This document shows, in pieces, positions 13,949 to 62,758 of a stretch of 64,000 nucleotides of DNA; positions within the stretch are counted from its first letter, which is position 1; the number at the start of each line of letters is the position of its first letter. The stretch is from Candidatus Borkfalkia faecipullorum (GTDB lineage Bacteria > Bacillota > Clostridia > Christensenellales > Borkfalkiaceae). Where the stretch lies: contig DXFX01000009.1 in the NCBI GenBank assembly GCA_019114245.1, forward strand, positions 42,888 to 106,887, in the 5' to 3' direction. The notes under the pieces were generated by a model. The model did no database searches. It saw only the letters and a program-made list of their open reading frames with translations, and was not told the DNA's origin. A program made the translations under genes and the position numbers.

Positions 13949-13958
13949 CAGGAGGCTT

Positions 13959-45084: not shown

Positions 45085-48000
45085 ATGGAATTGCAAAATC
45101 TTATCGGGAATATTATAAAAAACAATAAAACGGAGCTGTTTGCAGATCCGATAGCTTTTCTGGATACGGTCCGCAAAGAGTGCAGGAGCGAACAGGATGC
45201 CATCAAGTATATTCAGCTGAAAGTACTGCTCTGTTTGAACGGAAAGTTTATCCAATCTCTCTACCTTTCGGTAAAAGACGGCTCTTATTGCAATGTCATC
45301 GAAAGTTTGTCTGCCTTTTATGACGCGCAAAATATTTCTCCCCGCGTCTATGCGTACTTTATTTACGTTGTCCTGAAAGGTTGCGGCGTGGCGGCGGACA
45401 GAGCGGAGTGGTTCGATCCGCTGCAAGATACTCTGGATGAAAGGAGCGTGCCGAAAGAAAATAAGACTTTCGGAGTGGGCGCATATGCGGAAGATCTGTC
45501 CGAGTTTTGCGCAGGGGAAAGGAGCGATTCTTTAAAAAAGTTTACGGGGCGCAGGGCCTTGGTCACTGTTCCCTGCGGATACAGGACGATCGAAAGGGGC
45601 GCTTTTGCGCACCATCGGGAGATCCGATGGCTCACCGTACCGGATACCGTTGTCTGCATTCAGGAGGAAGCGTTCGGGGACTGCGGAGAACTGGAAACAG
45701 TCGTCCTTTCTTCATCTCTTTCGGAAATTCCGGACAAGTGCTTTTATGATGCAGGAAAACTGGCTCTTGTCATTGCTCCCAACGTCAGATCTGTAGGGCA
45801 GAAGGCGTTTTACAGGAGCGGCATTTCCAACTACAAAAAGATAGGGGGCGGTCCCGAAAAAATAGGGGCGTTTGCATTTTTCGGGTGCAAAAAGCTGAAA
45901 AATATCGATCTGAGCAGGTGCAGATCGGCAGAGCGAGGCGCTTTTTCGGAATGCACGGAGATCAGAACGTTGAAGCTGAACGACGGCATCCGTCTGGAAG
46001 CGGGACTTCTTTCCCTCTTTTCCAAGGATGCGGCATCTTTCCGATCTTGCGGGTATCATCTGGAAGAGATCACATATGTCTGTGAACGGGGAGAGATCCC
46101 TGCGGCATTGTTTGCGGGACTTGGTTGCGTCAGAAAGATCACCGTTGAGGGAAAGGTCAAAAAAATCGGGGAAAGAGCTTTTGCGGACTGTTCCGCGCTG
46201 AGTGAGCTCTGTATGGATTTTGTCGGGCAGGAGATCCCGCACGGCGCGTTCCTCAATTGCGGAAGCATGGTCCGCTTCCCGGATTTCCCGATGGTCGGAA
46301 AAATCGGCAATTCCGCCTTTGCGGGCTGTTCTTCCCTGAAAACGCTGTGTTTCGGGACAACTGTCCGTACGGTCGGGGAAGGTGCTTTTTCGGGCTGCGC
46401 GCAGTTGCAGAACCCCGGCCTGTCTTTCGAGAGCGGCGAGATCGCCGAGGAATGCTTCAGCGGCTGTTCTTCTCTGAAAGAGATCTCCCTGGAAAAGGTC
46501 AGGATCATCGGGCGCGGGGCGTTTGCAGGCTGTGCGTTCGGCAGGGGATTGTCCCTTTCGGCCGCAACGGAATTTGTAGGGGAAGGCGCTTTTCGGAATG
46601 CCGAGATCGGAGGAGTTTTGGAACTCCCTTGCCGTGCCGCGTTCGGCAAGCTGGCTTTTGAGGGAGTCAGGGGGGTGCGGGATCTCGTCTTGCACTCCGC
46701 ATCCCTCCGCGACAGGGAAGGAAGATCCCTGCAGATATACGAGCTGTTCGCGGAGAACATGGAAACGTTCAACAGCCGTTACGAGGGGATACAAAACGTC
46801 AAAATTTCCGCAGACGGAATCGGCGACGGGGCGTTTATGGGCTGGAAGAACCTCAAAAAAGTACTCGTTGCCGCCCCGATCGACAGGATCGGAAAAAATG
46901 CGTTCAGAAACTGTACGTCGCTGGAAGGCGTAAAGATCAATGCCGATCAAGTGCAGATCGGGGAATCCGCTTTTGCAGGCTGTGCGTCGCTGCGGCGGCT
47001 GAAAACCTCTGTCAAAAGCGAAAAAGAGAGAGATCTTGACCTGTCGGGAGTACAGTTTATCGGCCGCCTTGCATTTGAAAGCTGTCCCTTTGAAAGTATT
47101 TTCATCCCCGCTTCCTGTAAAGCGGAACAGGAGGCGTTTGCCTCCTGCGTACAGCTGAAAGAGATCGGTATCGATTGCAGCACGGGGGAAGTTCCCAAGC
47201 CGCCTTATTTTTATTTCGCAAAGGACAAGGAGGAGTTCAACACCCGATTTGAGGGGTGCCGCAAGGCTGTTTATTACAATTTCCGCTCCGTTCCGGAAGG
47301 GTTTTTTGAAGGTTTCAGAAATTTACGGGAGATCGGTTTTGTCGGAAACGTCGAACAGATCGGCCGCGCGGCTTTTTCCGCATTGCCGTCTCTGGAACAG
47401 GTCAGCGGATGTTATATCGGGACGTCGCTGCCGGAATCATCCTTTGAAAACTGCGCCAACCTTGTCGGAATCTTCGCCGCGGAAAAGGTGAAAGAAATAG
47501 GTCCGCGTGCCTTTAAAGGCTGCACATCTCTGACAGCTCTCTCTTTCGGGACCGTCGGAGAACTCGGCGATTCCGCTTTTGCCGAATGCTCCTCTTTAAG
47601 CAGGATCGAGGGGAATTTTATCTGCCGTACGGTCGGGGCGTATGCCTTTTCCGGATGCAGAAAGCTTGAGGATTTTTCCTTCCTTTCCGATGCCCGCGAA
47701 GCGGGCGCGTATGCCTTTGAAAATTCTTCGATCGGCGCCTTTCCAAAAACTCTCGGGTATATTGCGCGCGGCGCATTCAAAAACGTCAGTTTGGGCAGCG
47801 TCGTTACAATTCCTGCCGGGGTCCGCTTTGAAAAGGGCGCTCTGGAGGGAATCGCCGATTTTAAAACGCTCGTGTTGGAAGAGAAATGCGTCACAGACCG
47901 TGCGGGGGAGGATTTCCCCCTGTATCAGCTTTTTGACGATTCTTTGGCCGCGTTCAATGAAAAATATTTTCAGCTCGTCAACGTCAAAATCAAAAAAGGT

Positions 48001-51000
48001 CTGGCGGCGGAACAATTCCGCGGCTGGAAAAAGATCCGCAAAGTGCTCATAGAATCGGGCGGCGGGACGGAAATCCCCGTTTCCTGCTTTGACGGATGTG
48101 AAAGCCTGGAAGGGGTCAAGGTCGCGGGGCCGCTGCTCGGAATAGAACGTTTTGCGTTCAGAAACTGCAATATGCTCAAACGCCTGAAAACGGGCGGGGC
48201 GGAGGAAGATGCGGATGTTTCCCTTCGTCAAACGCAAAAGATCGCGGAAAATGCCTTTGAAAACTGTCATTCCGTCCGTACGATCTCATTTACGCTGAAA
48301 AGCGTTTCGGACGGCGCGTTCCGCGGCTGCGACGGGGCAGAGACGGTAAAAGTATGGCTGGACGAACCGGAAAAATGGATGGAAAGAAGAATCTGTTCCG
48401 TCTTTGCGGAAGAAAAAGATTTTGGGGCCGCGTATCTGAATCTGAAGAACGTAGAGGCGGAAAATGTGCAAATTCTGCCTTCCGGCCTGTTTTCCGGCTG
48501 CAAAAACGTCAGGCAGATCGTCTGCAACGGAAGGACGGAACAACTCGGCCCCGCAGCTTTTCAAGGCTGTTCGATGCTGGAAACGCTGCGCCTGGATTTT
48601 ACGGGAAAGGAACTGCCTGCGCACTGCTTTGAGGATTGCGGCGCGCTGTCCGGCGCAATGCGATTTGAAAATGTAGAAAAGATAGGCGAAGCCGCCTTTA
48701 AAAATTGCGGCAGGATCACCGAGATCGTTTTCCCCTCACAGGTGAATGTGCTGGGCGAAGAATGTTTTATGAACTGCAAAAATCTGCACTCCCTGCAGAT
48801 GGAGTTTACGGGAACCGAACTACCTGCAAACTGTTTTGCCCAATGCAGGGCGCTATCCTGTCCTCCCGAGTTGAGGAATACGGAGGAGATCCATGCGCAG
48901 GCATTTGCGGGCTGTGATGCGATCGTTCACCTCTGTATCGGGGCAGTGAAAGAAGGTCGCCTCGAAACTTTATTTCAGGATTCCTTTCAAAAGATCAGGT
49001 CTGTCGAATATGTGTCCCCTTACATTCCCGATAACTTTTTCAAGGGAATGACCGCTCTCGAAAAGATAGTGTTCAGGAAGCGGATCGTCAGGATCGGGAA
49101 CGGCGCTTTTTACGGGACAAAGTCGTTGAAAGAAGTCGGAAATCTTGAGGGTGCGGAAAGTGTAGGCAGATATGCTTTTGCTCACAGCGGGATCGAAAAG
49201 ATCAGGTTTACAGACGCTCTGGAACAGATCGGGGTGGGAGCGCTGGCGGGATGCAACTGCCTGCAGACAGCGGAAATGCCCGCGTGCTTCGATCGTTTCG
49301 GAAGCCTTTTCGATTGGAAACAAGGGCCCGGAACAAAAGAGATTGTTCAGAAGCATTCGGACAGAGAGAAAAAATACTATCTTCCCTCCTCCCTGCGCAA
49401 GGTCATCATCGCGGGCGGGCAGCTTTCGGAAGGGGCTTTCAGCGGGGTCGGGTGCGACGTTGAAGTGCGCTTCGCGCCGCAGGAGATCCCGAACGATGCG
49501 TTTTACGGATTCAGGGGGCGTCTGGACATCGACGTCTCGCAGGTTCGCACGGTCGGGGAAAACGCTTTCGGCTGCGTAAAATTCGGGGATCAAAGCATGG
49601 AACTGCCCGCCGTCGTTTCGATAGGCCGCTGTGCCTTTGAAGGTGCGCAAATGAAGGCTTTGGCGTTGGGAAAGGAGATCCGAAGCATTGCGGAGGATGC
49701 CTTTGCCCGCGCGGAGATCGAAAAGCTGCAGATTTCGGAAAACGAGTTTTACACTGCGGAAAATTCTCTGCTTGTCGCCGAAAAAAGCGGCAAGCTCCTG
49801 TATGCGGGCAAGGGGATCTCGGGAGAGGTTTCTCTCGGCGGCCGCGTGACAGAGATACAGGCGCACGCATTCGGAGACTGTAAAGGCCTTACCTGTATCC
49901 GCGTCGGGGATGCCGTGCAGATCGGAGAAAGAGCCTTTGAAAATTGCAGCGGACTGCTCTCTCTCGTCATTTCGGAGAAAACGCAGAAGATGGGCAGGGG
50001 CGTCTGCGAGGGTTGCGGAAACATTGTCTATCTCGAACTTCCCTTTTTGGGAGAAAGTGCAGACATACCGTATGCGCTGGATTACGTTTTCGGAGAAACG
50101 GGAGCGGGTAAACGGGCAGACGTCGCAGTCAGGGGCGGAAAGATCGCGCAGGGCGTCTTCCGTACAAATAAAAAGGCGGAATACGGGAAAATCGATCTTT
50201 CGCATACCGATTGCGAAGAGCTTTGCGAAGATTCTTTCCGCAATGCGGACATCGGAGAGCTGATCCTGCCCGATTCGCTGAAAACTGTACGGGAGGGCGC
50301 TTTCGGTGCGACAGTCGCAGACCGCGTTCTCTTTGCGGGGACAGATCCCCTCGGCAATATAGCGGTCACAGAGGATTGTATTTATTCCGCGGATACGTTG
50401 GTTTACAGATTTAAAAACTGCGACCTGCTGAATATCCGCGGAGGGACGAAACGGATCGGTAAGGATGCGTTTGATGTCAATGCGCGGGCGGAGAAACTTG
50501 TCCTTGCCGATGCGGAGATGCTCAGCGGCGAAAACCTTGCCGCCGTAAACGCCCTGGAGGGAGTTTCCGTGCTGGAAGTTTGGGCGGAGGTATCCGTGCC
50601 TTTCCATGAGCTGTTCAAAACTTTCTGCCGCGGCCTTACTTCTGTCACATACGGCGGAAGCGATTCCTGTGACGGTATGTTCGGCGGGCTGGAGAGTCTG
50701 ACGGAACTTCTGTCGCCGAATATCAGAGTCCTCAAAAACGGTTCTTTCGGGGGCTGCGGCAAACTGACGTTTCTGCCGTCCTTCCGAAAGTTGGAGGTCA
50801 TAGAAAAGGGCGCGTTTGACGGAATGCCCGAAATCAGCCTTCTGTATATCCCGGAAACCATTCAGACGATCGATCCCGAGGTGTTTGACGATGTGTCCGT
50901 CGGGCATCTCGTTGTCGGGGACAACCAAAACTATCGCTGCGAAGGCGGTATTCTTACCGACAGGCGGCGGACGGTCCTGTATGCGGAAAAAGAGATCAAA

Positions 51001-51660
51001 GGGAACGTCTGCCTCGACGGGGCGTCGGAGATCCGCAAGTCTGCATTCAAAAATTGCAGATCTCTGACGGGCGTAAAGGCGGATGTGCTCCTTGCGATCG
51101 GCGACAATGCCTTTGAAGGCTGCAAAAAACTCAGTTCTTTCGAGGTCATGGATTGCAAAAAAATAGGTCGGGAGGTGCTGCACGGGTGCAGGGCGCTCTC
51201 CGCTTTGCGGCTTCCTTACATCGGGCCTTCCGAAGACGTCGGCCGCAATATTCTCTATTTGTTTTCCCCCGATGAGGCTGTCAAAGCCGGGCAAATGCCC
51301 GCAGAGTCCGACATTGCGAAATATCTGCCGCCCGCGCTCAGGAAGGTAACGCTTTATCGGCAGAAGGTGATCGACGGAACGTTCAGCGGGTGCGCAAAGC
51401 TCTCCGAGATCAAACTGTCGGAGCGGACGCAGGAGATAAGTTCCATGTCTTTCAGCAAGTGTATCGGCCTGAAATATCTGGTCATTCCCGATTCCGTACA
51501 GAAGATCGGCGATTTTGCGTTTGCGGGCTGCGATTACGGCCTTGTAACGGAGCTTGCCGATAAGAAGCAGGAGGCGATGTTCTCCAAAAAATGGGACGTC
51601 ATCAAAAACGGATTCCTCGGCTTAGGTACCAAAAGAGTAAAGGTGAAATACAGGAGATGA
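45085..51660 (+). CDS. Giant LRR_5/BspA-type leucine-rich repeat protein, no evident signal peptide
   Basis: Dozens of IG(E/N/R)xAFxxCxxLxxIxL repeats (e.g. KIGERAFADCSALSELCMDF). From MELQNLIGNIIKNNKTELFADPIAFL the N-terminus has no secretory signal. Start codon uncertain (ORF open from 44932). Confidence 0.88.
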   Translation: MELQNLIGNIIKNNKTELFADPIAFLDTVRKECRSEQDAIKYIQLKVLLCLNGKFIQSLYLSVKDGSYCNVIESLSAFYDAQNISPRVYAYFIYVVLKGCGVAADRAEWFDPLQDTLDERSVPKENKTFGVGAYAEDLSEFCAGERSDSLKKFTGRRALVTVPCGYRTIERGAFAHHREIRWLTVPDTVVCIQEEAFGDCGELETVVLSSSLSEIPDKCFYDAGKLALVIAPNVRSVGQKAFYRSGISNYKKIGGGPEKIGAFAFFGCKKLKNIDLSRCRSAERGAFSECTEIRTLKLNDGIRLEAGLLSLFSKDAASFRSCGYHLEEITYVCERGEIPAALFAGLGCVRKITVEGKVKKIGERAFADCSALSELCMDFVGQEIPHGAFLNCGSMVRFPDFPMVGKIGNSAFAGCSSLKTLCFGTTVRTVGEGAFSGCAQLQNPGLSFESGEIAEECFSGCSSLKEISLEKVRIIGRGAFAGCAFGRGLSLSAATEFVGEGAFRNAEIGGVLELPCRAAFGKLAFEGVRGVRDLVLHSASLRDREGRSLQIYELFAENMETFNSRYEGIQNVKISADGIGDGAFMGWKNLKKVLVAAPIDRIGKNAFRNCTSLEGVKINADQVQIGESAFAGCASLRRLKTSVKSEKERDLDLSGVQFIGRLAFESCPFESIFIPASCKAEQEAFASCVQLKEIGIDCSTGEVPKPPYFYFAKDKEEFNTRFEGCRKAVYYNFRSVPEGFFEGFRNLREIGFVGNVEQIGRAAFSALPSLEQVSGCYIGTSLPESSFENCANLVGIFAAEKVKEIGPRAFKGCTSLTALSFGTVGELGDSAFAECSSLSRIEGNFICRTVGAYAFSGCRKLEDFSFLSDAREAGAYAFENSSIGAFPKTLGYIARGAFKNVSLGSVVTIPAGVRFEKGALEGIADFKTLVLEEKCVTDRAGEDFPLYQLFDDSLAAFNEKYFQLVNVKIKKGLAAEQFRGWKKIRKVLIESGGGTEIPVSCFDGCESLEGVKVAGPLLGIERFAFRNCNMLKRLKTGGAEEDADVSLRQTQKIAENAFENCHSVRTISFTLKSVSDGAFRGCDGAETVKVWLDEPEKWMERRICSVFAEEKDFGAAYLNLKNVEAENVQILPSGLFSGCKNVRQIVCNGRTEQLGPAAFQGCSMLETLRLDFTGKELPAHCFEDCGALSGAMRFENVEKIGEAAFKNCGRITEIVFPSQVNVLGEECFMNCKNLHSLQMEFTGTELPANCFAQCRALSCPPELRNTEEIHAQAFAGCDAIVHLCIGAVKEGRLETLFQDSFQKIRSVEYVSPYIPDNFFKGMTALEKIVFRKRIVRIGNGAFYGTKSLKEVGNLEGAESVGRYAFAHSGIEKIRFTDALEQIGVGALAGCNCLQTAEMPACFDRFGSLFDWKQGPGTKEIVQKHSDREKKYYLPSSLRKVIIAGGQLSEGAFSGVGCDVEVRFAPQEIPNDAFYGFRGRLDIDVSQVRTVGENAFGCVKFGDQSMELPAVVSIGRCAFEGAQMKALALGKEIRSIAEDAFARAEIEKLQISENEFYTAENSLLVAEKSGKLLYAGKGISGEVSLGGRVTEIQAHAFGDCKGLTCIRVGDAVQIGERAFENCSGLLSLVISEKTQKMGRGVCEGCGNIVYLELPFLGESADIPYALDYVFGETGAGKRADVAVRGGKIAQGVFRTNKKAEYGKIDLSHTDCEELCEDSFRNADIGELILPDSLKTVREGAFGATVADRVLFAGTDPLGNIAVTEDCIYSADTLVYRFKNCDLLNIRGGTKRIGKDAFDVNARAEKLVLADAEMLSGENLAAVNALEGVSVLEVWAEVSVPFHELFKTFCRGLTSVTYGGSDSCDGMFGGLESLTELLSPNIRVLKNGSFGGCGKLTFLPSFRKLEVIEKGAFDGMPEISLLYIPETIQTIDPEVFDDVSVGHLVVGDNQNYRCEGGILTDRRRTVLYAEKEIKGNVCLDGASEIRKSAFKNCRSLTGVKADVLLAIGDNAFEGCKKLSSFEVMDCKKIGREVLHGCRALSALRLPYIGPSEDVGRNILYLFSPDEAVKAGQMPAESDIAKYLPPALRKVTLYRQKVIDGTFSGCAKLSEIKLSERTQEISSMSFSKCIGLKYLVIPDSVQKIGDFAFAGCDYGLVTELADKKQEAMFSKKWDVIKNGFLGLGTKRVKVKYRR

Positions 51661-51664
51661 CTTT

Positions 51665-52363
51665 ATGGAACAGAATTATGCGCAGTTCGACCTGATCGTT
51701 TTTCTCGATCACAGGTCTTTGGCGGAGGCAGATCTTTCCTTTCTTGACGGGATCGATGATTCAAAGACGAAAGTCAGGGTCATGACAAGGGAGGTCGCCC
51801 TGTTCAACGATCGTTATAAGAACATGGCGGATGCGGAAAAGAAAAAAGTTTTCAAAGAGAAAAAGGTGGACCTGCTGAACAGGCTCATCGGCGAAAACAA
51901 GCTCAGGTTTCTGGGCGCGGCAGACGAGCAGGATCCCGAGTATCATCTTCTGGCGATCCTGGTCGGGAAGTATTATCGGCAAAACGTTTTGCTCATCACA
52001 AACGATGCGGAAAAGGCAAAACCGTTTTTGCCGCTGATCCCCGTATACGAGGTGTTCGGGCAGGTGCTGAAAATTATTTCTCTGACGGATACCGCAACGG
52101 AGTACGCATTTGAAGACAGCCGCAAAGCCTTGGCAAAATTGTCGGCAGCGGGGGAGAGCGCGCCGTCCGCAACGGACGTTGCGGAACCCGCAAAAGAGGA
52201 AGAAGACCGCACCGCAGAGGCGCGGGAAGAGCAGAACGCCGAAACCGCGGGGCAGGACGATGCGGAAAAAAACGATCCTGACGGCGAAGAAGGCGGAAAA
52301 GCGGAAACTTTGGAACCGTCCGGAAGCAGAGAGGATCAGCCCGACGACGAATTTGATTTTTAA
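51665..52363 (+). CDS. PIN-like domain protein with acidic low-complexity C-terminus
   Basis: YAQFDLIVFLDHRSL...NVLLITNDAEKAKPFLPLIPVYE resembles a PIN fold beginning (hhhLD) and end (LITND); acidic tail. Starts 4 nt after the LRR stop. Confidence 0.55.
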   Translation: MEQNYAQFDLIVFLDHRSLAEADLSFLDGIDDSKTKVRVMTREVALFNDRYKNMADAEKKKVFKEKKVDLLNRLIGENKLRFLGAADEQDPEYHLLAILVGKYYRQNVLLITNDAEKAKPFLPLIPVYEVFGQVLKIISLTDTATEYAFEDSRKALAKLSAAGESAPSATDVAEPAKEEEDRTAEAREEQNAETAGQDDAEKNDPDGEEGGKAETLEPSGSREDQPDDEFDF

Positions 52364-52374
52364 AGGAGGGATTT

Positions 52375-53115
52375 ATGAGCAATTCTTATCTCGGCGATGA
52401 TGATTTGATTTTCAACACTTCATCGAGAATACCTGTGTGTCTTTGTATCGATACGAGCGGCTCGATGGATCAGTACGACGATACGGATACGAGCCGGATC
52501 GAACGCGTGAAAAAGGGCGTCGCTCAGTTTTATGCGGAATTGCGGGAGAACGATCTTACAAAATATTCCGCGGAAGTTGCGATCGTGGGGTTCAGCACTA
52601 CACCTTACATAGTGCAGGATTTCAAGACGATGGATCTCGTCGACGCCGCTTCGGTCAACCTTATCCCGCACGGGAAAGGAGATCTGGGGAAGGGCGTCCT
52701 GAAAGCGCTGGAATTGCTGCAGGGCCGCAAGGAATCCTATAAGAGAAACGGCATCGATTATTACCAGCCGTGGCTGATCATCATGACGGACGGGCGGCCG
52801 ACGGGCGAAGAAAACACGATGGCAGACCTCAGACAGGCACAGCAGAAAGTCACGGAAATGGAAAAAAGCAAAAAACTTACGGTCATCCCCGTCTTTATCG
52901 GGAGGACGGAAGGCGATTCCGAGTTGAGCGAGATCGATTCCAAGGCCGATAAATACCTTTCCGGATTTTCCCAAAAGAATGCGCCGCTGCAGCTCAGCTC
53001 GGGCGAAAAGTTCAGCAGGTTTTTCGAATGGCTGGGGAAGAGCGTCAGCATCGTGACAAGCGATTCGGACGTCGAACTCGATTTTGCAGATCTCACGGAC
53101 TGGGACGAAATTTAA
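52375..53115 (+). CDS. vWA (TerY-like) protein, copy 1
   Basis: YLGDDDLIFNTSSRIPVCLCIDTSGSMDQ (MIDAS DxSxS), WLIIMTDGRPTGEE, FFEWLGKSVSIV, C-term DLTDWDEI. Confidence 0.9.
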   Translation: MSNSYLGDDDLIFNTSSRIPVCLCIDTSGSMDQYDDTDTSRIERVKKGVAQFYAELRENDLTKYSAEVAIVGFSTTPYIVQDFKTMDLVDAASVNLIPHGKGDLGKGVLKALELLQGRKESYKRNGIDYYQPWLIIMTDGRPTGEENTMADLRQAQQKVTEMEKSKKLTVIPVFIGRTEGDSELSEIDSKADKYLSGFSQKNAPLQLSSGEKFSRFFEWLGKSVSIVTSDSDVELDFADLTDWDEI

Positions 53116-53130
53116 AGAGAGGGTACACTT

Positions 53131-53880
53131 ATGAGCAAATATTTAGGAGAAGACGATCTGATACTCAATACATCCTCGAGGATCCCTGTCTGTCTGTGTA
53201 TCGATACTTCCGCTTCTATGCGGCGCGTTATCGACGGCACGGGCAGGGATACAGGCGAAACAGAGTTTGTGGACGGAAAACTCTGGAGGATCGTTGAAGG
53301 CGGAAAAAACCTTCTCGACAATATGAACGAGGGCTTGGAGGCGTTTTATAAAGCGATCAACAGCAACGAACAGGCAAAGCTTTCCTGCGAACTCGCCGTC
53401 GTCACTTTTGACGACGAAGCGCGCGTTTTGGAGGATTTCGGCACTCTGGATAAGAAACGGCCGGTCAGGATCAGTGAAACGGGGGACAATACCGCTCTCG
53501 GAGAGGGGATCTCCCTTGCGCTGAAACTCCTGGAAACCAGAAAAAGAGAATATCGGAAAAACGGCGTGGATTATTACCAGCCCTGGCTTGTCATCTTTAC
53601 CGACGGGGACGCATCGGACAGCGTCGCCGAGGCACGGCAGAAAATCAGGAGCCTGGAAGAGGAGAAAAAACTGACCGTGTTTACGTTTGCCCTGTCGGAC
53701 GATGTGAACATGAAAGCTCTCGGCGAACTTTCGAGGAGAAGGCCCATTTCTCTGAAAACCGACAAACTGGAGGAGTTTTTCGAGTGGCTCGGCAAGAGCG
53801 TCAGCACCGTTTCCATGTCGCAGGTCGGCGAGAAATTAAAGCTGGATACCTCAGGCATGGACGATTGGGCAGAAATTTAA
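53131..53880 (+). CDS. vWA (TerY-like) protein, copy 2
   Basis: YLGEDDLILNTSSRIPVCLCIDTSASMRR, WLVIFTDGDASD, FFEWLGKSVSTVSMSQVGEKLKLDTSGMDDWAEI. Confidence 0.9.
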   Translation: MSKYLGEDDLILNTSSRIPVCLCIDTSASMRRVIDGTGRDTGETEFVDGKLWRIVEGGKNLLDNMNEGLEAFYKAINSNEQAKLSCELAVVTFDDEARVLEDFGTLDKKRPVRISETGDNTALGEGISLALKLLETRKREYRKNGVDYYQPWLVIFTDGDASDSVAEARQKIRSLEEEKKLTVFTFALSDDVNMKALGELSRRRPISLKTDKLEEFFEWLGKSVSTVSMSQVGEKLKLDTSGMDDWAEI

Positions 53881-53968
53881 GGGAAAACACGAAAAAGCCC
53901 GTTTTTTGGCAAAAATTTTTGCAGAAAATACGGGAGAATCAGGAAACGTAAGAATCAAAGGAGTTACA

Positions 53969-54640
53969 ATGAGCAATCAATTTTTGGGAGAAGACGATCT
54001 TGTGCTGAATACCGCTTCCAGGATCCCTGTGTGCCTTTGTCTGGACGTGAGCAGCAGCATGATGGGGTGCATCGGCGAGCTGAACAGCGGCGTCAACGAG
54101 TTTTACCGCGCTGTGAGAAGCAATGAAGCGGCGAGGCAGTCCTGCGAAATCGCGGTCGTAACATTCGGGTCGGACGTAAAGGTCGTGGAAGATTATTCTT
54201 CGGTAGATACGAAAGAACCCGCGGCAATGCAGGCGTACGGCGGAACGGCCATGACGGAAGGGACGGAAAAAGCCCTGGAAATTCTGGAGAAAAGGAAAGA
54301 ACAGTACAAGCAGAACGGGATCGACTATTACCAGCCCTGGCTCGTCATCATGTCGGACGGCGAACCGAACGACCCCGCCACGTTAAAGAAGGTTCAGGAG
54401 AAGATCAGACAGCTGGAAGCGGACAGAAAACTCGTCGTGTTTGCCATAGGCATCGGCAGCGGGGTAAATATGGATATTATGGACAACTTCTCCAAGAGGA
54501 AGGCAAAAAAATTAAAAGGATACAAATTTGAAGACTTTTTTGAATGGCTGGGGAAAAGCGTTTCCATCGTTTCCCAATCTCAGGTCGGCGAAAAAGTAAA
54601 ACTGGATACGTCCGGAATGGACGACTGGGCAGAAATTTAA
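53969..54640 (+). CDS. vWA (TerY-like) protein, copy 3
   Basis: FLGEDDLVLNTASRIPVCLCLDVSSSMMG, WLVIMSDGEPND, FFEWLGKSVSIVSQSQVGEKVKLDTSGMDDWAEI. Confidence 0.9.
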   Translation: MSNQFLGEDDLVLNTASRIPVCLCLDVSSSMMGCIGELNSGVNEFYRAVRSNEAARQSCEIAVVTFGSDVKVVEDYSSVDTKEPAAMQAYGGTAMTEGTEKALEILEKRKEQYKQNGIDYYQPWLVIMSDGEPNDPATLKKVQEKIRQLEADRKLVVFAIGIGSGVNMDIMDNFSKRKAKKLKGYKFEDFFEWLGKSVSIVSQSQVGEKVKLDTSGMDDWAEI

Positions 54641-54654
54641 AGGAGGACAAAAAC

Positions 54655-55389
54655 ATGAGCGACTTTTTTGGCGAAGACGATTCTGTCGAAAAAAACAATT
54701 CTTATATCGGGGACGACGATCTCATCACAAACACATCGAGCAGGCTGCCCGTCTGCCTTTGTCTGGATATTTCCGGCTCCATGAAGAAAAATGACGCCAT
54801 CTCTGCGCTGAACGAGGGCGTCGAAGCCTTTTATCAGGCGATCAGGGAGGACGAACAGGCCCGCAATTCCTGCGAGATCGCCGTGATCACTTTCAACAGC
54901 GAAGTCAAGATAGCGGAAGAATTTTCCACGGTCGATAAGAAGGGGAAAGTTCATTTTACGGCGGAGGGAGGAACGGCCCTGGCTCATGCGGTCAACAGGG
55001 CGCTGGATCTTCTGGAAGAACGCAAAAATTCGTATAAGGCCAACGGCGTGGACTATTATCAGCCTTGGCTTGTGATCATTACGGACGGAAAACCCGGGGA
55101 TCCGGAAGACATTCCGCAGGCGCAGAGCAGGACAAAAAAACTGGCGGAAGAAAGAAAGCTCACGCTGTTCCCCATTGCCGTGGGCAGCGACGACAACGAG
55201 GAAAAATACAGGCAGGTCATGGATGTCCTCAACGGGTTCAGCAACAAATCGGCAAAACATCTGAAAGATCTCAAATTTTCCGATTTTTTTGAATGGTTGG
55301 GCAAGAGCGTTACCATCGTGTCGGCCTCGAAGGTCGGAGATAAAGTCAGGCTCGATACGACAGGCATGGACGATTGGGCGGAAATCTGA
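54655..55389 (+). CDS. vWA (TerY-like) protein, copy 4
   Basis: YIGDDDLITNTSSRLPVCLCLDISGSMKK, WLVIITDGKPGD, FFEWLGKSVTIVSASKVGDKVRLDTTGMDDWAEI. Confidence 0.9.
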   Translation: MSDFFGEDDSVEKNNSYIGDDDLITNTSSRLPVCLCLDISGSMKKNDAISALNEGVEAFYQAIREDEQARNSCEIAVITFNSEVKIAEEFSTVDKKGKVHFTAEGGTALAHAVNRALDLLEERKNSYKANGVDYYQPWLVIITDGKPGDPEDIPQAQSRTKKLAEERKLTLFPIAVGSDDNEEKYRQVMDVLNGFSNKSAKHLKDLKFSDFFEWLGKSVTIVSASKVGDKVRLDTTGMDDWAEI

Positions 55390-55406
55390 TCACGGACGAA
55401 TGCGGT

Positions 55407-56726
55407 ATGAGTAAAGAATGGTTTTTGAATTATGGCGAATTGGCAGGGAAAAGCCACCTTTCCCGAAAAATTCCCTGTCAGGACAGAGCGCTGTGCAGAC
55501 AGGGGAACGGAGTGACCGTCGCCGTCCTTTCGGATGGCTGCGGAAGCTCCCCGATCTCTCAATACGGATCGCAGGTGACCACGGAATGCCTGTGCAAACT
55601 CTTTATCGAAGAGTTTGACGCGATCCACAGCGCGCAGATCCTCACCTCCAGAAAAATGATCGTAGACGCCATTGTGCTTTCCCTGTACGGATTTATTCGC
55701 TCCAACGGGGAAATTTTCAGCGCATACAAAGCGGAAAACATTGAAAAATACAACGAGTTTACCCAAAAGAGAAGCGAGGAAGAGTTTTTTCTGGATGCAC
55801 TCAATGCCACCGCGCTGTTTGCCGCCGAAAAAGAGGGCGAGTATATCATCGGCCAGATCGGGGACGGTGTGATCGGCGGCGTTGTTCGCAATCGTTTGAA
55901 AATCATCATGGAAGAAAAAAAAGAGGGGGAAATCAACGGGACGTTTTATCCTGCCAACATCTATACTCTCGCGCTGAAAAATCCGGATTGGTACGGTTGC
56001 GCACAGTTTCAGCTGAAAAAACCGAAAAATACGGATGTTTCCGCGTTTATTCTCACTTCAGACGGGGTGGATTCCTTTTTCGATCTGCGCGTCCCGTTCC
56101 AGAAAAAATACACGACCGGCGTGGATAAATTGTTCAGATGCACGGTGGAAGCTTCCTCTTTTGAGGAATCCAAGGCGATTCTGGACGAACAGTTTTTACC
56201 AGCCCTGGTCAACGGTTCGAGGGCGATGGACGATTGCAGCGTTGCCGTCATCGTCAGGAAAGATTATTTTATCGGGCAGGACGGGTACGCCGTTACAATG
56301 TATGAAAGGCCGAAAGAGGCCGCAGAACAATCTCCCGCAGAACAATCTCCCGCAGAGCAATCTCCCGTAGACGCAAAAACCACCGTTTCCGAAGGCCGGA
56401 CGCCGGAATGCGCGCAGAACGTGTGGTACGGGGAATTCGGAGAGGAATACCTCGGGCTGGAACAGAGGATCCGCGAACGGATCGGTGAAGAAGCCGAAGG
56501 AGTATTGGAAAAACTCGGGAAAACGGAGGGAGAAGCCGCTCATAAAATGGAGGTGATGCGGATGTATGCCTCTGTCCTGGACGCCATAGCAACGTTCGGC
56601 TGTTTCGATTTCGACCCGACGATCCATGACGAAAGGATCTTCGGAGAGATCTACGACATGGACGCGGGGATCTCCTGCAAGCCTGCAGACACCGCAGAGG
56701 GAAAGTACAGCATTTATCGGGAATGA
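55407..56726 (+). CDS. PP2C-like serine/threonine phosphatase
   Basis: GKSHLSRKIPCQDRALC...VTVAVLSDGCGSSPISQYGSQVTTE...GQIGDGVIGGV...FILTSDGVDSFFD...MDDCSVAVIV follow the PP2C motif order. Confidence 0.85.
   Translation: MSKEWFLNYGELAGKSHLSRKIPCQDRALCRQGNGVTVAVLSDGCGSSPISQYGSQVTTECLCKLFIEEFDAIHSAQILTSRKMIVDAIVLSLYGFIRSNGEIFSAYKAENIEKYNEFTQKRSEEEFFLDALNATALFAAEKEGEYIIGQIGDGVIGGVVRNRLKIIMEEKKEGEINGTFYPANIYTLALKNPDWYGCAQFQLKKPKNTDVSAFILTSDGVDSFFDLRVPFQKKYTTGVDKLFRCTVEASSFEESKAILDEQFLPALVNGSRAMDDCSVAVIVRKDYFIGQDGYAVTMYERPKEAAEQSPAEQSPAEQSPVDAKTTVSEGRTPECAQNVWYGEFGEEYLGLEQRIRERIGEEAEGVLEKLGKTEGEAAHKMEVMRMYASVLDAIATFGCFDFDPTIHDERIFGEIYDMDAGISCKPADTAEGKYSIYRE
56321..56365 (+). repeat. 15-bp tandem repeat (cgcagaacaatctcc x3) encoding EQSPA repeats in the PP2C protein linker
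   Basis: Direct reading: cgcagaacaatctcc / cgcagaacaatctcc / cgcagagcaatctcc. Confidence 0.95.
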
Positions 56727-56729
56727 GTT

Positions 56730-58886
56730 ATGTTCACTAAGGAAAAAATCAAAGACGTACGCGCTTTTTTGAACAGTTTTGACAGAATTTTTATCGACGA
56801 AACCTTATTGAAAAACGACAGTGCTTCGGAACGGCTTGCGGAAATTCTGAAAGAAAATCTTTTAAAAAAGCATTGCATTGTCCTCAACGAAAAGACGTTG
56901 AGATCCGGGATCAGCAAGGCGCTGATCAAAAAACTTCAGGATCAAGACCTTCTCCTGGTCAAGGACGGAGTGCACATCATCACGCTCAATACCTCATACT
57001 GCAATGCGGCGGCGGAACTTTCCAAAAGAAAGCATTACAAAATGCTCCTGATCTCCAACGATGCACAGGAAAGTCTGGCGTTTTTAAAGCTGGATTACGA
57101 TGACAACCACGTCAACGATCTCGGCGCCTGCGGAATAGATCCTGCAGGATTGTTTTCCTATGTGTATCAGCCTCCCGAAGAGCGGATCCTCTTTACCGTT
57201 ACGGCAAATGCGGAAACGGAATCTTTACAGTTGCTCTTTTACAAAACGCTTGCCGGCGGAGCCGTAAAAATCCTGTATCCTGCGGACGATCCGAAAACGC
57301 AGGCCGGAATGAAGGGGAAGGGAGTATTTGAATATTCTTCCACAAAACGGGAACTGTTCGAGTCTGACCTCGTCCAATTTGTTGCAAAGTATCGGGGCAG
57401 TCAGATCGCATCCTCCAAATGTGATTTTTACCTGGAAAAGGAACAGCATTGGTCTGTACAGCCCGCAGGGTCTTCTCTGACGGCAAAAATCATTCAGGAG
57501 GGGGATCTCCCTTCTCCCGTTCCTCCTTCTGCCCCGGAAGGCCCCGCACGGGAGACGCCGAAAGGGGAAAAGTATCCCTATTACGGCGGCCAGCCGACCA
57601 AACTGACCACGGACAGCATCATCGAAGTGGAAGAACCTGTCGAAGGCGCCGTATTAAAGACGAGAGAGGGAAACTCGATCCGTCTGGTGAAAAAACTCGG
57701 GGCAGGCGGGGAAGGTGTAGTCTATGCCACCGACCGGCCGAACATCGTCTGTAAAATTCTGAACAACAGGGCCGGCACCAATCTCACGAGAAACAAGAAA
57801 GAAAAGATCGAGTTTATGACCCGGCACCCGATCAGCCATCCGCTTGTCATCTGGCCGCTGAATGCGGTCTATACACAGGGCAATGTCTTTGTCGGTTTTA
57901 CCATGAAAGCGGTCAAGGGGATCGAACTGAAAGCATTGATGGATCAGATGAAATACAGGGACGGAAGCCTTTCCTGCGAGTTCGGGATTTTCAATCTGGA
58001 CAGGACGCAGATTATCCGCATGATCATTTCCATTCTGGAAACGCTCTGTTTTTTACATGAGCGGAATATCATCATCGGCGACATAAAGATGGAAAATTTC
58101 ATGATCATGAACAGAGATCCGTCCAAAGTTTATTTTGTCGACTGCGACAGCTATCAGGTGGGACGCTTTCAGGCAACCAAAGTAAGCGCGGGGTTTGTTC
58201 CGCCCGAGCTGGCAAACAAAAAAGTGGACCTGGTCTACAGGACGTTCAGTAACGAATATTATGCTCTTTTTGCCCTGCTTTTCATGATCTTGCATAAAGC
58301 GGTCAAACCGTATTCGCAAAAAGGCGAGGCAATGGAAATGACTGAGGAACAGAGGGCCGGGGCAGGTATTTTTCCCTACTTTCTCAATGCGGAAAAAACT
58401 GTTCTCCATGCCCCCAACGGCTACCCTTCCCCCAACTGGTCTCACCTGCCGGGGTATATCAAAAAGGCGTTTTGCAGTATGGGGCAGAGAAACGGGGATC
58501 ACTTTGCAGCAGAAAAAAGATATACGGCTCAGGAGTGGTTAAAACTTTTTCGGGCATATGATAAGGATCTGCAAAACGGAAAGCTCGCCGCAAAGGACAG
58601 AAGGTGCAATACAGGTGTTTTCGGGGCGGCGGAAGAGCCGATCGATTATGCGGCCGTCGACCTCAAAATCAGCTCGATCGTTACAAAACTGATGAGCGAC
58701 GTTTCGCTGAATGAGCTTATCAGAAAATCTTTCCTCTCTGCCAGGAGAAAAGAGGCGGCGGACAGGATCGGCCTGATCGAAAAAACGTTGAGAAAAACCG
58801 TCGAGTATAAGGACAGCAATTACAGGTTTATTCTCAAAAAGAATCTGGGTTGTTATTATTCCGTGGAGTTCAGCTATAAGGAATAA
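56730..58886 (+). CDS. PIN-like domain fused to a Ser/Thr protein kinase
   Basis: N-term SFDRIFIDETLL...KMLLISNDAQESLAFL (PIN-like). C-term VKKLGAGGEGVVYAT (P-loop), ERNIIIGDIKMENFMI (catalytic loop), VYFVDCDSYQVG (DFG-equivalent), VPPELAN. Confidence 0.85.
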   Translation: MFTKEKIKDVRAFLNSFDRIFIDETLLKNDSASERLAEILKENLLKKHCIVLNEKTLRSGISKALIKKLQDQDLLLVKDGVHIITLNTSYCNAAAELSKRKHYKMLLISNDAQESLAFLKLDYDDNHVNDLGACGIDPAGLFSYVYQPPEERILFTVTANAETESLQLLFYKTLAGGAVKILYPADDPKTQAGMKGKGVFEYSSTKRELFESDLVQFVAKYRGSQIASSKCDFYLEKEQHWSVQPAGSSLTAKIIQEGDLPSPVPPSAPEGPARETPKGEKYPYYGGQPTKLTTDSIIEVEEPVEGAVLKTREGNSIRLVKKLGAGGEGVVYATDRPNIVCKILNNRAGTNLTRNKKEKIEFMTRHPISHPLVIWPLNAVYTQGNVFVGFTMKAVKGIELKALMDQMKYRDGSLSCEFGIFNLDRTQIIRMIISILETLCFLHERNIIIGDIKMENFMIMNRDPSKVYFVDCDSYQVGRFQATKVSAGFVPPELANKKVDLVYRTFSNEYYALFALLFMILHKAVKPYSQKGEAMEMTEEQRAGAGIFPYFLNAEKTVLHAPNGYPSPNWSHLPGYIKKAFCSMGQRNGDHFAAEKRYTAQEWLKLFRAYDKDLQNGKLAAKDRRCNTGVFGAAEEPIDYAAVDLKISSIVTKLMSDVSLNELIRKSFLSARRKEAADRIGLIEKTLRKTVEYKDSNYRFILKKNLGCYYSVEFSYKE

Positions 58887-59347: not shown

Positions 59348-60043
59348 TCAGCGGAAAAAACCGTAAAGACATTTTCGTATTTCCGTGCTGTAACTTCCCG
59401 TTCCGAGGCCGAGTTCTAAAAGTTCTCCCGCATACTTTATTTCGGCGCTTTTCAGCATTTGGTAAATTTTTTCGGGCAATCGGAGCTCGTCTATGGGGGA
59501 GAGAAATTTTTTAATGACGGGATCATCGATTTCTAACAGATCGGCGCGGGTGCTGCAAGGCGCCCCGAATTCATCTTTACCGTTAATGCGAAAGACGTCA
59601 GAAATCTTTTTGTATTCGATTGCCGTCAGATCTTCCCGTAAAAATTTTGAAAAACAAAAGGCACCGAGAAATTTGCAGCAAGTCGGGCTGTCGTCTGTAT
59701 CATACGGGTCGATTTGAAAAGCTAACCGAAAAGGATGAAATCCTTCTTTGTCTCGTTTTTCCATTATCTTTTTATGAGAGGGGCTTACGCAGAATTCTTT
59801 TATATAGGTCTCATCCAAGCTTTTAAAATTTTCCCACAAATTATCTTCCATGCCATGTTCCATACCGTTCATATATACGAACCAGGCACCGACTCCTGCG
59901 GCACCGAAATCGTCAAGTTCTGCCAAACTGCGCCTATAACCTTTAAATTTGGTACCGATCGCTTTGTTGATCATGTCGGTATAGCTGTGCCCATAGATAA
60001 GATCTCCTGCTGTCAGTGTCTTCATACTTTTTCTCCCTTTCAA
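59348..60043 (-). CDS. Uncharacterised protein with C-terminal RNAP alpha-CTD-like helix-hairpin-helix segment
   Basis: DELRLPEKIYQMLKSAEIKYAGELLELGLGTGSYSTEIRKCLYGFF resembles the alpha-CTD pattern LSxRxxNxLKxAxIxTxxELL. Start may be 60025. Confidence 0.6.
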   Translation of the reverse strand: MKGRKSMKTLTAGDLIYGHSYTDMINKAIGTKFKGYRRSLAELDDFGAAGVGAWFVYMNGMEHGMEDNLWENFKSLDETYIKEFCVSPSHKKIMEKRDKEGFHPFRLAFQIDPYDTDDSPTCCKFLGAFCFSKFLREDLTAIEYKKISDVFRINGKDEFGAPCSTRADLLEIDDPVIKKFLSPIDELRLPEKIYQMLKSAEIKYAGELLELGLGTGSYSTEIRKCLYGFFR

Positions 60044-60046
60044 GTT

Positions 60047-60883
60047 TCAGGTGATTTGTACTGTTTTAGAAATTCCTTGTTCGGCGGCAAGGCGGATTCC
60101 GTCAACAAAAAACGAATATTTTTCGGCGTTTTTTATTTTTTTCAGGATTTGTATACACTTATCAAATTCATTTAAATTACGGTACAATTCTGATAATATC
60201 AGCAGATCTTTATCTTCCATTGTCTGAAAATAAGGCAATATCTGTTTGCAGAAAAGGAGATATTTTTCTGTATCGATCTGCGGGAAATACTTCATTTCCG
60301 GATGATCTGTTTTCAGGGAACCAATGCCAAACCAGGTGTCTGCCTGTCGTTTTCTTTCTGCTTCGCTTGTGTTCGGCGGGCAATTAGAAGAAACAGGCAG
60401 AGGACGATGGTATGCCTGCCAAAGGTGTATCACCATTTGCTTTTGCAGGAATTTTCTTTCTTCCTCGGAAGGCTCTGCGGGGAAGCTGAGTCCGAATGAT
60501 AAAGCATCTTTCCAAAACTGTGCAAAGAACAGCCCTCGATTGCGCGATTCTGAACCGTAAGCAGAGCCGATTCCGTTTATCGTACCGTACAATCGGTCTT
60601 TTTTTGGCAGGCCCCGGCAAAAAGCGGTAGGATCGATGGCATCGTTGCGATCATCTTCCGCAATTCTGCGCTCTTCAAGATATTTCTGTTCAAAAAATTT
60701 TTTGCATTTGGGACATCGGGTGATCCGAAGATGGCTATGCAGAGGGATACCATATGTCCCGATTTGTGTGCCGTCTGAATAAAAGATCGAACTATAAACA
60801 GAATAACTTGCGGTTTCCGATCCCCAAAATGGATTTTTACAAAAGGGGCATTGGTATTCCGGCAACGGGGAATTGAACAGCAT
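60047..60883 (-). CDS. Uncharacterised zinc-ribbon protein
   Basis: EYQCPFCKNPFWG...ITRCPKCKKFFEQKYLEER: two CPxC-type knuckles. Confidence 0.65.
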   Translation of the reverse strand: MLFNSPLPEYQCPFCKNPFWGSETASYSVYSSIFYSDGTQIGTYGIPLHSHLRITRCPKCKKFFEQKYLEERRIAEDDRNDAIDPTAFCRGLPKKDRLYGTINGIGSAYGSESRNRGLFFAQFWKDALSFGLSFPAEPSEEERKFLQKQMVIHLWQAYHRPLPVSSNCPPNTSEAERKRQADTWFGIGSLKTDHPEMKYFPQIDTEKYLLFCKQILPYFQTMEDKDLLILSELYRNLNEFDKCIQILKKIKNAEKYSFFVDGIRLAAEQGISKTVQIT

Positions 60884-60894
60884 ACTCTTTGTCC

Positions 60895-61233
60895 TTAACG
60901 ATAAATTTTGTCGAGGAGTTCAGAAAGCCGATTTACAAGTTCGCCTTTATCGGAAGGGCAGGGGAGAGAGGAAGTCAGTACGCTTTGCAGAATAAATTCC
61001 CTTTCATTCAGGGAGAAACGCTTGCCCTGTAAATAAAAGCCTTTAGAGGTTTTGATGATAGGGTACCCTATCTTTTTCAAAAAAGCAATGTTTCGGCAAA
61101 CTGTTTTTCTGTCGCACGGAAAAATTTCCGAAAGATCGCGCGCAATTTGACTCTGCGTGAGAGGATGCGTTTCATCGCTTTCGCTTTCTAAAATTTTCAG
61201 GATCAGTAGTATGAGATATTTTTTCGGCTGCAT
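60895..61233 (-). CDS. Small HTH (WYL/DeoR-N-terminus-like) regulator
   Basis: KYLILLILKILESESDETHPLTQSQIARDLSEIFPCDRKTVCRNIAFLKKIGYPIIKTSKGFYLQ. Confidence 0.75.
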   Translation of the reverse strand: MQPKKYLILLILKILESESDETHPLTQSQIARDLSEIFPCDRKTVCRNIAFLKKIGYPIIKTSKGFYLQGKRFSLNEREFILQSVLTSSLPCPSDKGELVNRLSELLDKIYR

Positions 61234-61571
61234 TTTTAACTCCTCATTCTTATTATAGCATACTTATAGTACCAAAAATCGCCCATGGAATGCTTAAAAA
61301 TATCAGCCGAATTTTTCGGCTAAATTTATTTTAGCAAATATAAACAATGAATGCAATAATATGGCAAAATTAATTGATTTTGATATATTTTTGTGTGTTT
61401 TGTAGAAAAAAAATTTCGTTTGCAACTCTTGGTTTGTAATATCTTGTTTACCGATTATGCCGTGCAATGAATTACACGCAAGAACCATGGATATCCACAC
61501 CATTCAGACAGTGTTTAAGAGATTGTTTTCGGATCATCATGAGCTAAGATACACGTTTAATACCAGTAAGA

Positions 61572-61640
61572 AAGAGTGCGTTCAAAATGGAAACCTAAAA
61601 ATATTTATCGCGTCAAAGCAGCCGAAATTCAATGAAAAAA
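61572..61640 (+). repeat. Diverged direct repeat, copy A (partner at 62551-62620)
   Basis: aaagagtgcgttcaaaatggaaacctaaaaatatttatcgcgtcaaagcagccgaaattcaa vs aaagagtgcgctcaaaatagaaactaaaaaataattatcgaaccaaggtagccgaaaattcaa. Confidence 0.85.
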
Positions 61641-61698
61641 ATCGAATCAACAGCTTTATAAATTTGAGACAAAAGGTTACTGTATTTTTTATAAAATT

Positions 61699-61736
61699 AA
61701 GCTGGCTGAGCTTTTATTGCTCAGCCAGCTTTAAAA
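61699..61736. terminator. Hairpin terminator
   Basis: aagctggctgagc-ttttatt-gctcagccagctt, A/T-rich flanks. Confidence 0.75.
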
Positions 61737-61737
61737 T

Positions 61738-61977
61738 TTAGTCATGCAATGTCCCTCTATCGAACAGCGGCGAGGTAAAGAACTCCGCCAAGCTTATATC
61801 GAAGCCTTCACAAATGGCGTAGAGTGTTTTCATCTTGACTGAGCGGCTACGCTTTTTCTTAATCGACGTCAGAGTTGACTGCGGCACTCCACTCTTTTCA
61901 AACAGAGCATATTTTGTCATATTTCTCTCAATACAGAGCTGTTCTATTCTTAAAGCTATTGCATCCTCCAAAAGCAT
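61738..61977 (-). CDS. XRE-family HTH regulator
   Basis: RIEQLCIERNMTKYALFEKSGVPQSTLTSIKKKRSRSVKMKTLYAICEGFDISLAEFF. Confidence 0.9.
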   Translation of the reverse strand: MLLEDAIALRIEQLCIERNMTKYALFEKSGVPQSTLTSIKKKRSRSVKMKTLYAICEGFDISLAEFFTSPLFDRGTLHD

Positions 61978-62096
61978 ACTGCTAACCTCTACACTACGTG
62001 TTTATAGTTAGTAGTATAAAATTTTTAATATTTTATTTACTGCTATGTGTAGCATATTTGCTATTTAACCTAATAAATGTTATCATATCCAATGAT

Positions 62097-62537
62097 ATGG
62101 TAATCTCATTTTGCGGGCATCGGGAGTTTACTCCGGATGCAGAGAAAGAAAAAACTATAATAGATCTCCTATTAAAATATGCTGAAACAGAACAAGAAGT
62201 TATCTGTTACACGGGCGGATACGGCGCTTTCGACTGGTTTGCCGCCTCCTGCATAAGAAAAGCGCAGACGTTAGCCAAAAATATAAGGAATTGCCTTATT
62301 ATTCCATACATTACCGTCTCCTATCTTGACAGAATTAAAATTCACAAAGAAAAATTTAACGAAATAATCTATCCTCCACTTGAAGACGTGCCGCCTAAGT
62401 TTGCTATCATCCGCCGAAATGAATGGATGGTTGACAACAGCGAACTTTTGATAGCCCATGTAAAATTCAGTTGGGGCGGCGCCGGCAGAACATTGGAATA
62501 TGCAAAGAGAAGAGGAATGGAAATAATATTTATATAG
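62097..62537 (+). CDS. SLOG-like (YspA/DUF1273-type) Rossmannoid protein
   Basis: MVISFCGHREFTP...VICYTGGYGAFDWFAASCIRKAQTL...NEWMVDNSELLIAHVKFSWGGAGRTLEYAKRRGMEIIFI. Confidence 0.8.
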   Translation: MVISFCGHREFTPDAEKEKTIIDLLLKYAETEQEVICYTGGYGAFDWFAASCIRKAQTLAKNIRNCLIIPYITVSYLDRIKIHKEKFNEIIYPPLEDVPPKFAIIRRNEWMVDNSELLIAHVKFSWGGAGRTLEYAKRRGMEIIFI

Positions 62538-62550
62538 AATAGAAAGCACT

Positions 62551-62620
62551 AAAGAGTGCGCTCAAAATAGAAACTAAAAAATAATTATCGAACCAAGGTA
62601 GCCGAAAATTCAAATACATA
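62551..62620 (+). repeat. Diverged direct repeat, copy B
   Basis: See copy A at 61572. Confidence 0.85.
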
Positions 62621-62630
62621 AAATATATTA

Positions 62631-62664
62631 AAACAGAGCATACGCCGTTATGTACTCTGTTTTT
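62631..62664. terminator. Hairpin terminator
   Basis: aaaacagag-loop-ctctgttttt. Confidence 0.65.
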
Positions 62665-62758
62665 ACACACTCATAGTGATAAAATATCTCCACCACTCTT
62701 GCTTTATTATACCATTTTTGTTATAATATTTTATATAAACAACATTAGGAGTTAAATA

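What the first reader, a model, noticed from the sequence alone, without database searches (positions are those of the whole stretch)
45085..58886. Candidate undescribed signalling/defence system: giant cytosolic LRR + PIN + four vWA paralogs + PP2C + PIN-kinase
Eight consecutive same-strand genes with very short gaps. TerY-like vWA + PP2C + kinase triads are known around tellurite-resistance (Ter) systems. Here the triad is expanded to four vWA proteins, linked to two PIN-like domains and a giant LRR protein with no visible signal peptide, and no TerC/TerD/TerZ gene is in the window. The layout suggests a phospho-regulated intracellular sensor (LRR) coupled to a possible RNase (PIN) effector.
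Basis: partly seen in the sequence, partly recalled or inferred. Interest (0 to 1): 0.92.

Follow-up and report, generated by a model that had tools for sequence, protein, structure and literature searches.

The report
LRR-equipped four-vWA TerY-P phosphosignalling operon
An eight-gene bacterial operon combines a kinase, a phosphatase and four metal-binding vWA proteins, a layout related to a known anti-phage signalling module, with a giant intracellular leucine-rich-repeat protein and two apparently dead RNA-cutting (PIN) domains, so it looks like a rare variant of that module and not a new kind of system.

Summary
Eight + strand genes at 45085-58886 (gaps 3-88 bp) encode a 2191-aa BspA-type LRR protein without signal peptide or TM helix, a PIN-like protein, four TerY-like vWA proteins, a PP2C phosphatase and a PIN-kinase. 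It is a variant of the TerY-P triad, not a new kind. In 82 related loci from many phyla the kinase lies with a vWA and a PP2C in nearly all, and 76 have a fused and/or stand-alone PIN, so the PIN link is general. Distinctive here: four vWAs that arose once and are kept in three genomes (vWA1 always lacks the MIDAS Thr), the giant LRR, and reversed gene order. A congener (G569) keeps all eight genes on two contigs; LRR and PIN1 evolve 2-4 times faster than the vWAs. The 'PIN RNase effector' reading is weakened: acidic residues intact in most fused PINs of the family (57-60 of 66) are broken in both window PINs. TerD is absent from the genome. Small LRR_5 genes accompany such triads in Coriobacteria and Treponema. 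By-product: vWA and stand-alone PIN proteins share a C-terminal GWxE(I/L) tail, suggesting a common docking site. Defence is likely by analogy with TerY-P but untested.

The parts
45085..51660 (+). Giant BspA-type LRR protein, 2191 aa, no signal peptide or TM helix; N-terminal ~150 aa without Pfam match
   Evidence: LRR_5 E=6.5e-203, 18 stretches; no hydrophobic segment; N-terminus no Pfam match; colinear homologue of >=1955 aa, 55% id, in congener G569 and 2443-aa homologue in G570, 23% over 1891 columns
51665..52363 (+). PIN1: stand-alone PIN-like protein (fold at 9-140) with long acidic disordered tail ending DDEFDF; catalytic acid E2 missing, D4 not kept in the G569 copy
   Evidence: hhalign vs family PIN profile 90%; AF2 pLDDT ~91 in core; Foldseek plausible hits PIN domains of EST1A/SMG6 and Thermus (weak E-values); residue table
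52375..53115 (+). vWA1: TerY-like vWA, MIDAS Thr replaced by Gly in all three genomes; tail TDWDEI
   Evidence: VWA_2 E=2e-11; residue table; tree
53131..53880 (+). vWA2: TerY-like vWA, intact MIDAS, tail MDDWAEI
53969..54640 (+). vWA3: TerY-like vWA, intact MIDAS, tail MDDWAEI
   Evidence: 35-48% identical to plasmid vWA proteins in the listed hits
54655..55389 (+). vWA4: TerY-like vWA, intact MIDAS, tail MDDWAEI
   Evidence: PADLOC TerY weak E=0.0046
55407..56726 (+). PP2C-type phosphatase with the four aspartate motifs present
   Evidence: PP2C_2 E=2.3e-22; motifs located
56730..58886 (+). Kinase with N-terminal degenerate PIN (about 1-125) and beta-sandwich (about 130-230) before the kinase domain (about 317-625); lacks the treble-clef C-terminus of many relatives
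   Evidence: Pkinase E=4.2e-11; hhalign vs PIN profile 95%; AF2 mean pLDDT 68, Foldseek gives only Ig-like matches for the sandwich and no PIN match; catalytic motifs; PIN residues
44663..44691 (+). Promoter-like site upstream of the LRR gene (TTGCGA-17-TAAAAT, extended -10)
   Evidence: consensus scan; number of sites not above shuffle expectation, so weak

Best explanation
This is an accessory TerY-P-type phosphosignalling operon of the PIN-kinase kind. The PIN-kinase and PP2C set the phosphorylation state of a complex assembled through the four vWA proteins, three with intact metal-dependent (MIDAS) ligand sites and one altered. The LRR protein, the fast-evolving cytosolic component, most likely recognises or scaffolds the trigger or substrate. 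The two PIN domains no longer look catalytic and most likely serve as binding or docking modules. The output is most likely a stress or anti-invader response through phosphorylation, not RNA cleavage. Shown: gene content, domain make-up, conservation, ancient vWA quadruplication, loss of PIN acids, faster evolution of LRR and PIN1. Inferred: complex formation, LRR as sensor, defence role.
For: Kinase, vWA and PP2C co-occur in nearly all of 82 related loci across phyla, 76 with a PIN. All eight genes conserved in G569, four vWA+PP2C+kinase in G570. vWA quadruplication single and old, 100/99 clade. MIDAS, kinase and PP2C catalytic residues retained except MIDAS Thr of vWA1. PIN acids broken. dN 0.35-0.37 for LRR and PIN1 against 0.08-0.15 for vWAs at similar dS. 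LRR_5 with such triads in Coriobacteria and Treponema; in Slackia it is the only LRR_5 gene of the genome. A TerY-P system protects against T7-like phages (PMC7699616). Patchy: 2 of 40 genomes of the genus. Downstream neighbours include an EcoRI-type methylase and an SRA domain.
Against: No experiment. The defence role rests on analogy; the SRA/methylase neighbours may be unrelated. PADLOC models barely match. Fast LRR evolution also fits relaxed constraint. G570 LRR is on another contig and PIN1 was not found there. Most related triads lack an LRR_5 gene within the fetched flanks. dS is above 1, so the rates are rough. The PIN alignment in the helices is uncertain.
Confidence: 0.55

Rival explanations
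1. One reading: an LRR sensor activates a PIN ribonuclease effector through the kinase/phosphatase switch (abortive infection).
For: PIN linkage is general to the family, and fused PINs elsewhere keep the acids (D1 60/66, E2 57/66, D3 58/66, D4 60/66); PIN fold of PIN1 supported.
Against: Window kinase PIN lacks E2 and D3, the G570 copy lacks all four; PIN1 lacks E2, and its G569 copy also has D4 changed to N.
Confidence: 0.15
2. A metal or tellurite stress-response (Ter) system whose vWAs sense metals.
For: vWA proteins similar to TerY-like plasmid proteins; MIDAS sites in three of four.
Against: No TerD in any of the three carrier genomes although the search rings in control genomes; no Ter gene in the operon.
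Confidence: 0.08
3. Host-cell regulation: the kinase/phosphatase pair controls an internal LRR scaffold or surface functions, with no defence role.
For: The genome has several giant LRR_5 proteins at C51 with signal-like N-termini; the left neighbours are polysaccharide-degradation genes.
Against: Present in only 2 of 40 genomes of the genus, so not housekeeping; the operon LRR has no signal peptide and a different N-terminus.
Confidence: 0.17
4. Decaying relic or assembly artefact.
For: Draft assembly of 114 contigs; two degenerate PINs.
Against: All ORFs intact, same genes and order in an independent genome, dN well below dS in every gene.
Confidence: 0.03

Closest known systems
TerY-P triad (Anantharaman et al. 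2012; Gao et al. 2020, active against T7-like phages)
   Same: TerY-like vWA, PP2C and Ser/Thr kinase in one operon
   Different: Four vWAs instead of one, PIN instead of OB-fold or zinc ribbon on the kinase, stand-alone PIN, giant LRR, reversed gene order; PADLOC TerY/STK_OB models only weakly matched. Primary papers were not readable here; features taken from PMC11090510 and PMC7699616
PIN-kinase / vWA / PP2C loci found here (Fusobacterium, Megasphaera, Selenomonas, Bacillus, Coriobacteria and others)
   Same: Homologous kinase (mostly 25-38% identical over the kinase domain), vWA and PP2C; frequent fused PIN plus stand-alone (sometimes HTH-bearing) PIN upstream
   Different: Those mostly have order kinase-vWA-PP2C with one or two vWAs, catalytically intact fused PIN, no giant LRR
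Type III-A CoCoNuT operons with TerY-P and duplicated vWAs (PMC11090510)
   Same: TerY-P with duplicated vWA, one of which lacks the MIDAS Thr; an LRR element occurs on an associated ATPase
   Different: No McrB GTPase, McrC, coiled-coil, HEPN or helicase component in the operon here
MoxR-vWA ternary conflict systems (PMC7159879)
   Same: vWA-centred multi-protein conflict logic; PIN domains among effectors
   Different: No MoxR AAA+ ATPase and no VMAP here; kinase/phosphatase core instead

Membership tests
TerY-P triad | TerY-like vWA protein with MIDAS | tested here: met
   Pfam VWA, similarity to plasmid vWA proteins, MIDAS intact in vWA2-4; vWA1 lacks Thr. PADLOC TerY only E=0.0046 for vWA4
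TerY-P triad | PP2C-family phosphatase | tested here: met
   PP2C_2 E=2.3e-22; Asp motifs at 42, 152, 218, 275
TerY-P triad | Ser/Thr-type kinase linked in the same operon | tested here: met
   Pkinase E=4.2e-11, spacing 3 bp to PP2C, catalytic motifs
TerY-P triad | Kinase C-terminal zinc ribbon or OB-fold | tested here: not met
   No zinc-ribbon or OB match in the window kinase, though many relatives have a treble clef. So filed as a TerY-P-like variant, not a canonical member
TerY-P triad | Anti-phage activity | not testable with these tools
   Reported for a TerY-P system (PMC7699616); no assay here
Ter tellurite-resistance system | TerD-family gene | tested here: not met
   No PF02342 match in G000, G569 or G570; control genomes rang
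CoCoNuT | McrB GTPase/McrC and coiled-coil or HEPN components in the operon | tested here: not met
   None of the eight proteins nor the five downstream ORFs matches
Catalytic PIN ribonuclease | Four conserved acidic residues | tested here: not met
   Window kinase PIN lacks E2 and D3; PIN1 lacks E2; alignment-dependent
MoxR-vWA ternary system | MoxR AAA+ ATPase | tested here: not met
   No AAA+ protein in the operon

The most novel reading that the evidence does not exclude
An intracellular LRR-based immune receptor of bacteria: the giant, fast-evolving LRR protein recognises invader proteins and signals through a kinase/phosphatase switch with four specialised vWA adaptors and pseudo-PIN docking modules, tied together by a shared C-terminal GWxE(I/L)-type tail.
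Probability: 0.2. Interest if true: 0.85.

Novelty: new variant of a known kind. Interest (0 to 1): 0.55.

Why it matters
A TerY-P system protects against phages, but how such triads sense and act is not explained in the papers read here. A natural variant that has lost PIN catalytic residues, quadrupled its vWAs with one fixed MIDAS change, and gained a giant LRR separates the parts and makes sensor, switch and effector testable. The GWxE(I/L) tail shared by unrelated vWA and PIN proteins gives a concrete interaction motif to test. An LRR receptor wired to a phospho-switch would also resemble eukaryotic intracellular immunity in logic.

Tried and rejected
PF00481 search of the genome: no hit, because the phosphatase is PF13672. 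PIN1 search in viral contigs: nothing; in G570: nothing, which at this divergence shows little. Kinase search in phages: nothing. Close relatives in 150 family and 396 order genomes: none of comparable identity. Empty-site analysis: orthologues of the left neighbour are followed by different genes in each relative, so no clean insertion site. A regex screen for LRR neighbours failed and was replaced by a profile. PIN counts use a profile built partly from the same N-termini; independent Pfam support is 15 of 20.

Full report
Observation. The eight ORFs are real, intact and on the + strand with gaps of 3-88 bp. Pfam identifies the LRR (LRR_5), all four vWAs, the PP2C and the kinase. The LRR protein has no signal peptide or membrane segment by hydropathy, unlike the other giant LRR_5 proteins at contig C51 of the same genome, whose N-termini look like secretion signals. 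The two PIN assignments need profile methods: neither hits Pfam, but hhalign against the PIN domains of related kinases gives 90% (PIN1) and 95% (kinase N-terminus). The PIN1 model is confident in its core, and its plausible structural matches are PIN domains of EST1A/SMG6 and a Thermus protein, with weak E-values. The kinase N-terminus model is poorer (mean pLDDT 68) and shows an extra beta-sandwich at about 130-230 that matches only Ig-like folds, so its PIN label rests on the profile comparison.

What it belongs to. The vWAs are 35-48% identical to vWA proteins on plasmids of many bacteria in the listed hits. A scan of about 85,000 species genomes with the kinase family gave 79 loci. With three plasmid loci, all 82 have the kinase and nearly all also have a vWA and a PP2C; 76 carry a PIN, fused to the kinase, stand-alone, or both. 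Pfam independently finds PIN_4 in 15 of 20 fused N-termini. The usual order is (PIN)-PIN-kinase-vWA-PP2C. This matches the TerY-P triad as described in PMC11090510 and PMC7699616, except that those kinases carry a C-terminal zinc ribbon or OB-fold. The window kinase lacks such a C-terminus, so I file it as a TerY-P-like variant. Whether PIN-kinase triads have been described I cannot say: the 2012 and 2020 primary papers are not held.

What is distinctive. (a) Four vWAs. In a tree of 103 vWAs the 12 from the window genome, G569 and G570 form one clade (100/99), with vWA1 and vWA4 orthologous across all three genomes and vWA2 and vWA3 across window and G569. vWA1 lacks the MIDAS Thr in all three, and these are the only Gly at that position in the set. 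(b) The giant LRR. G569 keeps it directly before PIN1 and vWA1 on contig C91 and the rest on C49. G570 has a 2443-aa colinear LRR homologue (23% over 1891 columns) ending 154 bp from a contig end, while its vWA1 ORF starts 168 bp from another contig end; adjacency is suggested, not shown. (c) PIN catalysis. D1, E2, D3 and D4 are kept in 57-60 of 66 fused PINs, but the window kinase lacks E2 and D3 and PIN1 lacks E2. (d) Rates: dN 0.354 (LRR), 0.365 (PIN1), 0.237 (PP2C), 0.162 (kinase), 0.08-0.15 (vWAs), at dS 1.0-1.9.

LRR association elsewhere. Two Coriobacteria (Slackia L078, Thermophilibacter L084) have a small LRR_5 gene, an acidic ORF, PIN, kinase, vWA and PP2C in a row. In the Slackia genome that is the only LRR_5 gene, and Thermophilibacter has one other. 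Treponema loci have LRR_5 genes directly after the PP2C. So LRR_5 joins TerY-P-type loci more than once, although most related loci lack it.

Shared tail. Of 104 vWA ORFs, 83 end in W-x-x-[ILMV] near the C-terminus, as do 14 of 37 stand-alone PINs, against 0 of 78 PP2C, 1 of 103 kinases and 39 of 3184 other ORFs; 13 of 714 among long non-overlapping neighbours. Consensus is GWxE(I/L); window vWAs end TDWDEI or MDDWAEI. Clustering at 60% identity leaves 10 of 28 PIN clusters with it throughout. Since vWA and PIN are unrelated, a common binding partner is the simplest reading. PIN1 of the window ends DDEFDF and lacks the Trp.

Context. The cassette is patchy: 2 of 40 genomes of the genus. Left are glycoside hydrolases and a sugar transporter; right, GC falls to 0.34-0.46 with an SRA-domain gene, an HTH gene and an EcoRI-type methylase. 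This hints at a defence or mobile region but proves nothing. TerD is absent from all three carriers.

Verdict. A real, conserved, rare variant of TerY-P with a plausible intracellular LRR receptor or scaffold. Defence by phospho-signalling is the best guess; the PIN RNase step is unlikely in this lineage.

Noticed in passing
loci L002-L114, vWA and stand-alone PIN C-termini; window vWA ends at 53115, 53880, 54640, 55389: Shared C-terminal GWxE(I/L) tail on unrelated vWA and PIN proteins; coriobacterial acidic ORFs start with MxKI(V/I)GW.
   Followed up: partly
window 59348-63931: Low-GC block with SRA-domain gene (59348-60043 -), unknown (60047-60883 -), HTH_11 (60895-61233 -), 179-aa ORF (61998-62537 +) and EcoRI-type adenine methylase (62759-63931 +).
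   Followed up: partly
L057, L062, L053, L048, L002 upstream of the kinase: Stand-alone PINs in many loci carry an N-terminal Cro-like HTH and degenerate PIN acids, as if they were regulators.
   Followed up: partly
L063, L085, L098, L103 (Bacillaceae): Two PIN-kinase/vWA units in tandem with a gene between; in L063 that 402-aa protein (12928-14136) ends NARDWDSL and has no Pfam match.
   Followed up: no
L035:5117-8383: Directly downstream of the G569 cassette is a 1088-aa protein with HTH_3, List-Bact repeats and LRR_5.
   Followed up: no
L037:6604-9763: Downstream of the G570 cassette lie a MORN-repeat protein and at least two paralogous ~205-aa proteins weakly like FtsK gamma.
   Followed up: no
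G000:C51:1-54000 (L129-L131): Cluster of giant LRR_5 proteins (971-3331 aa) with signal-like N-termini elsewhere in the genome.
   Followed up: no
L011 (viral contig), L003 and L004 (plasmids): Related kinase/vWA genes lie on a viral contig and on plasmids beside transposases, so the module appears mobile.
   Followed up: no
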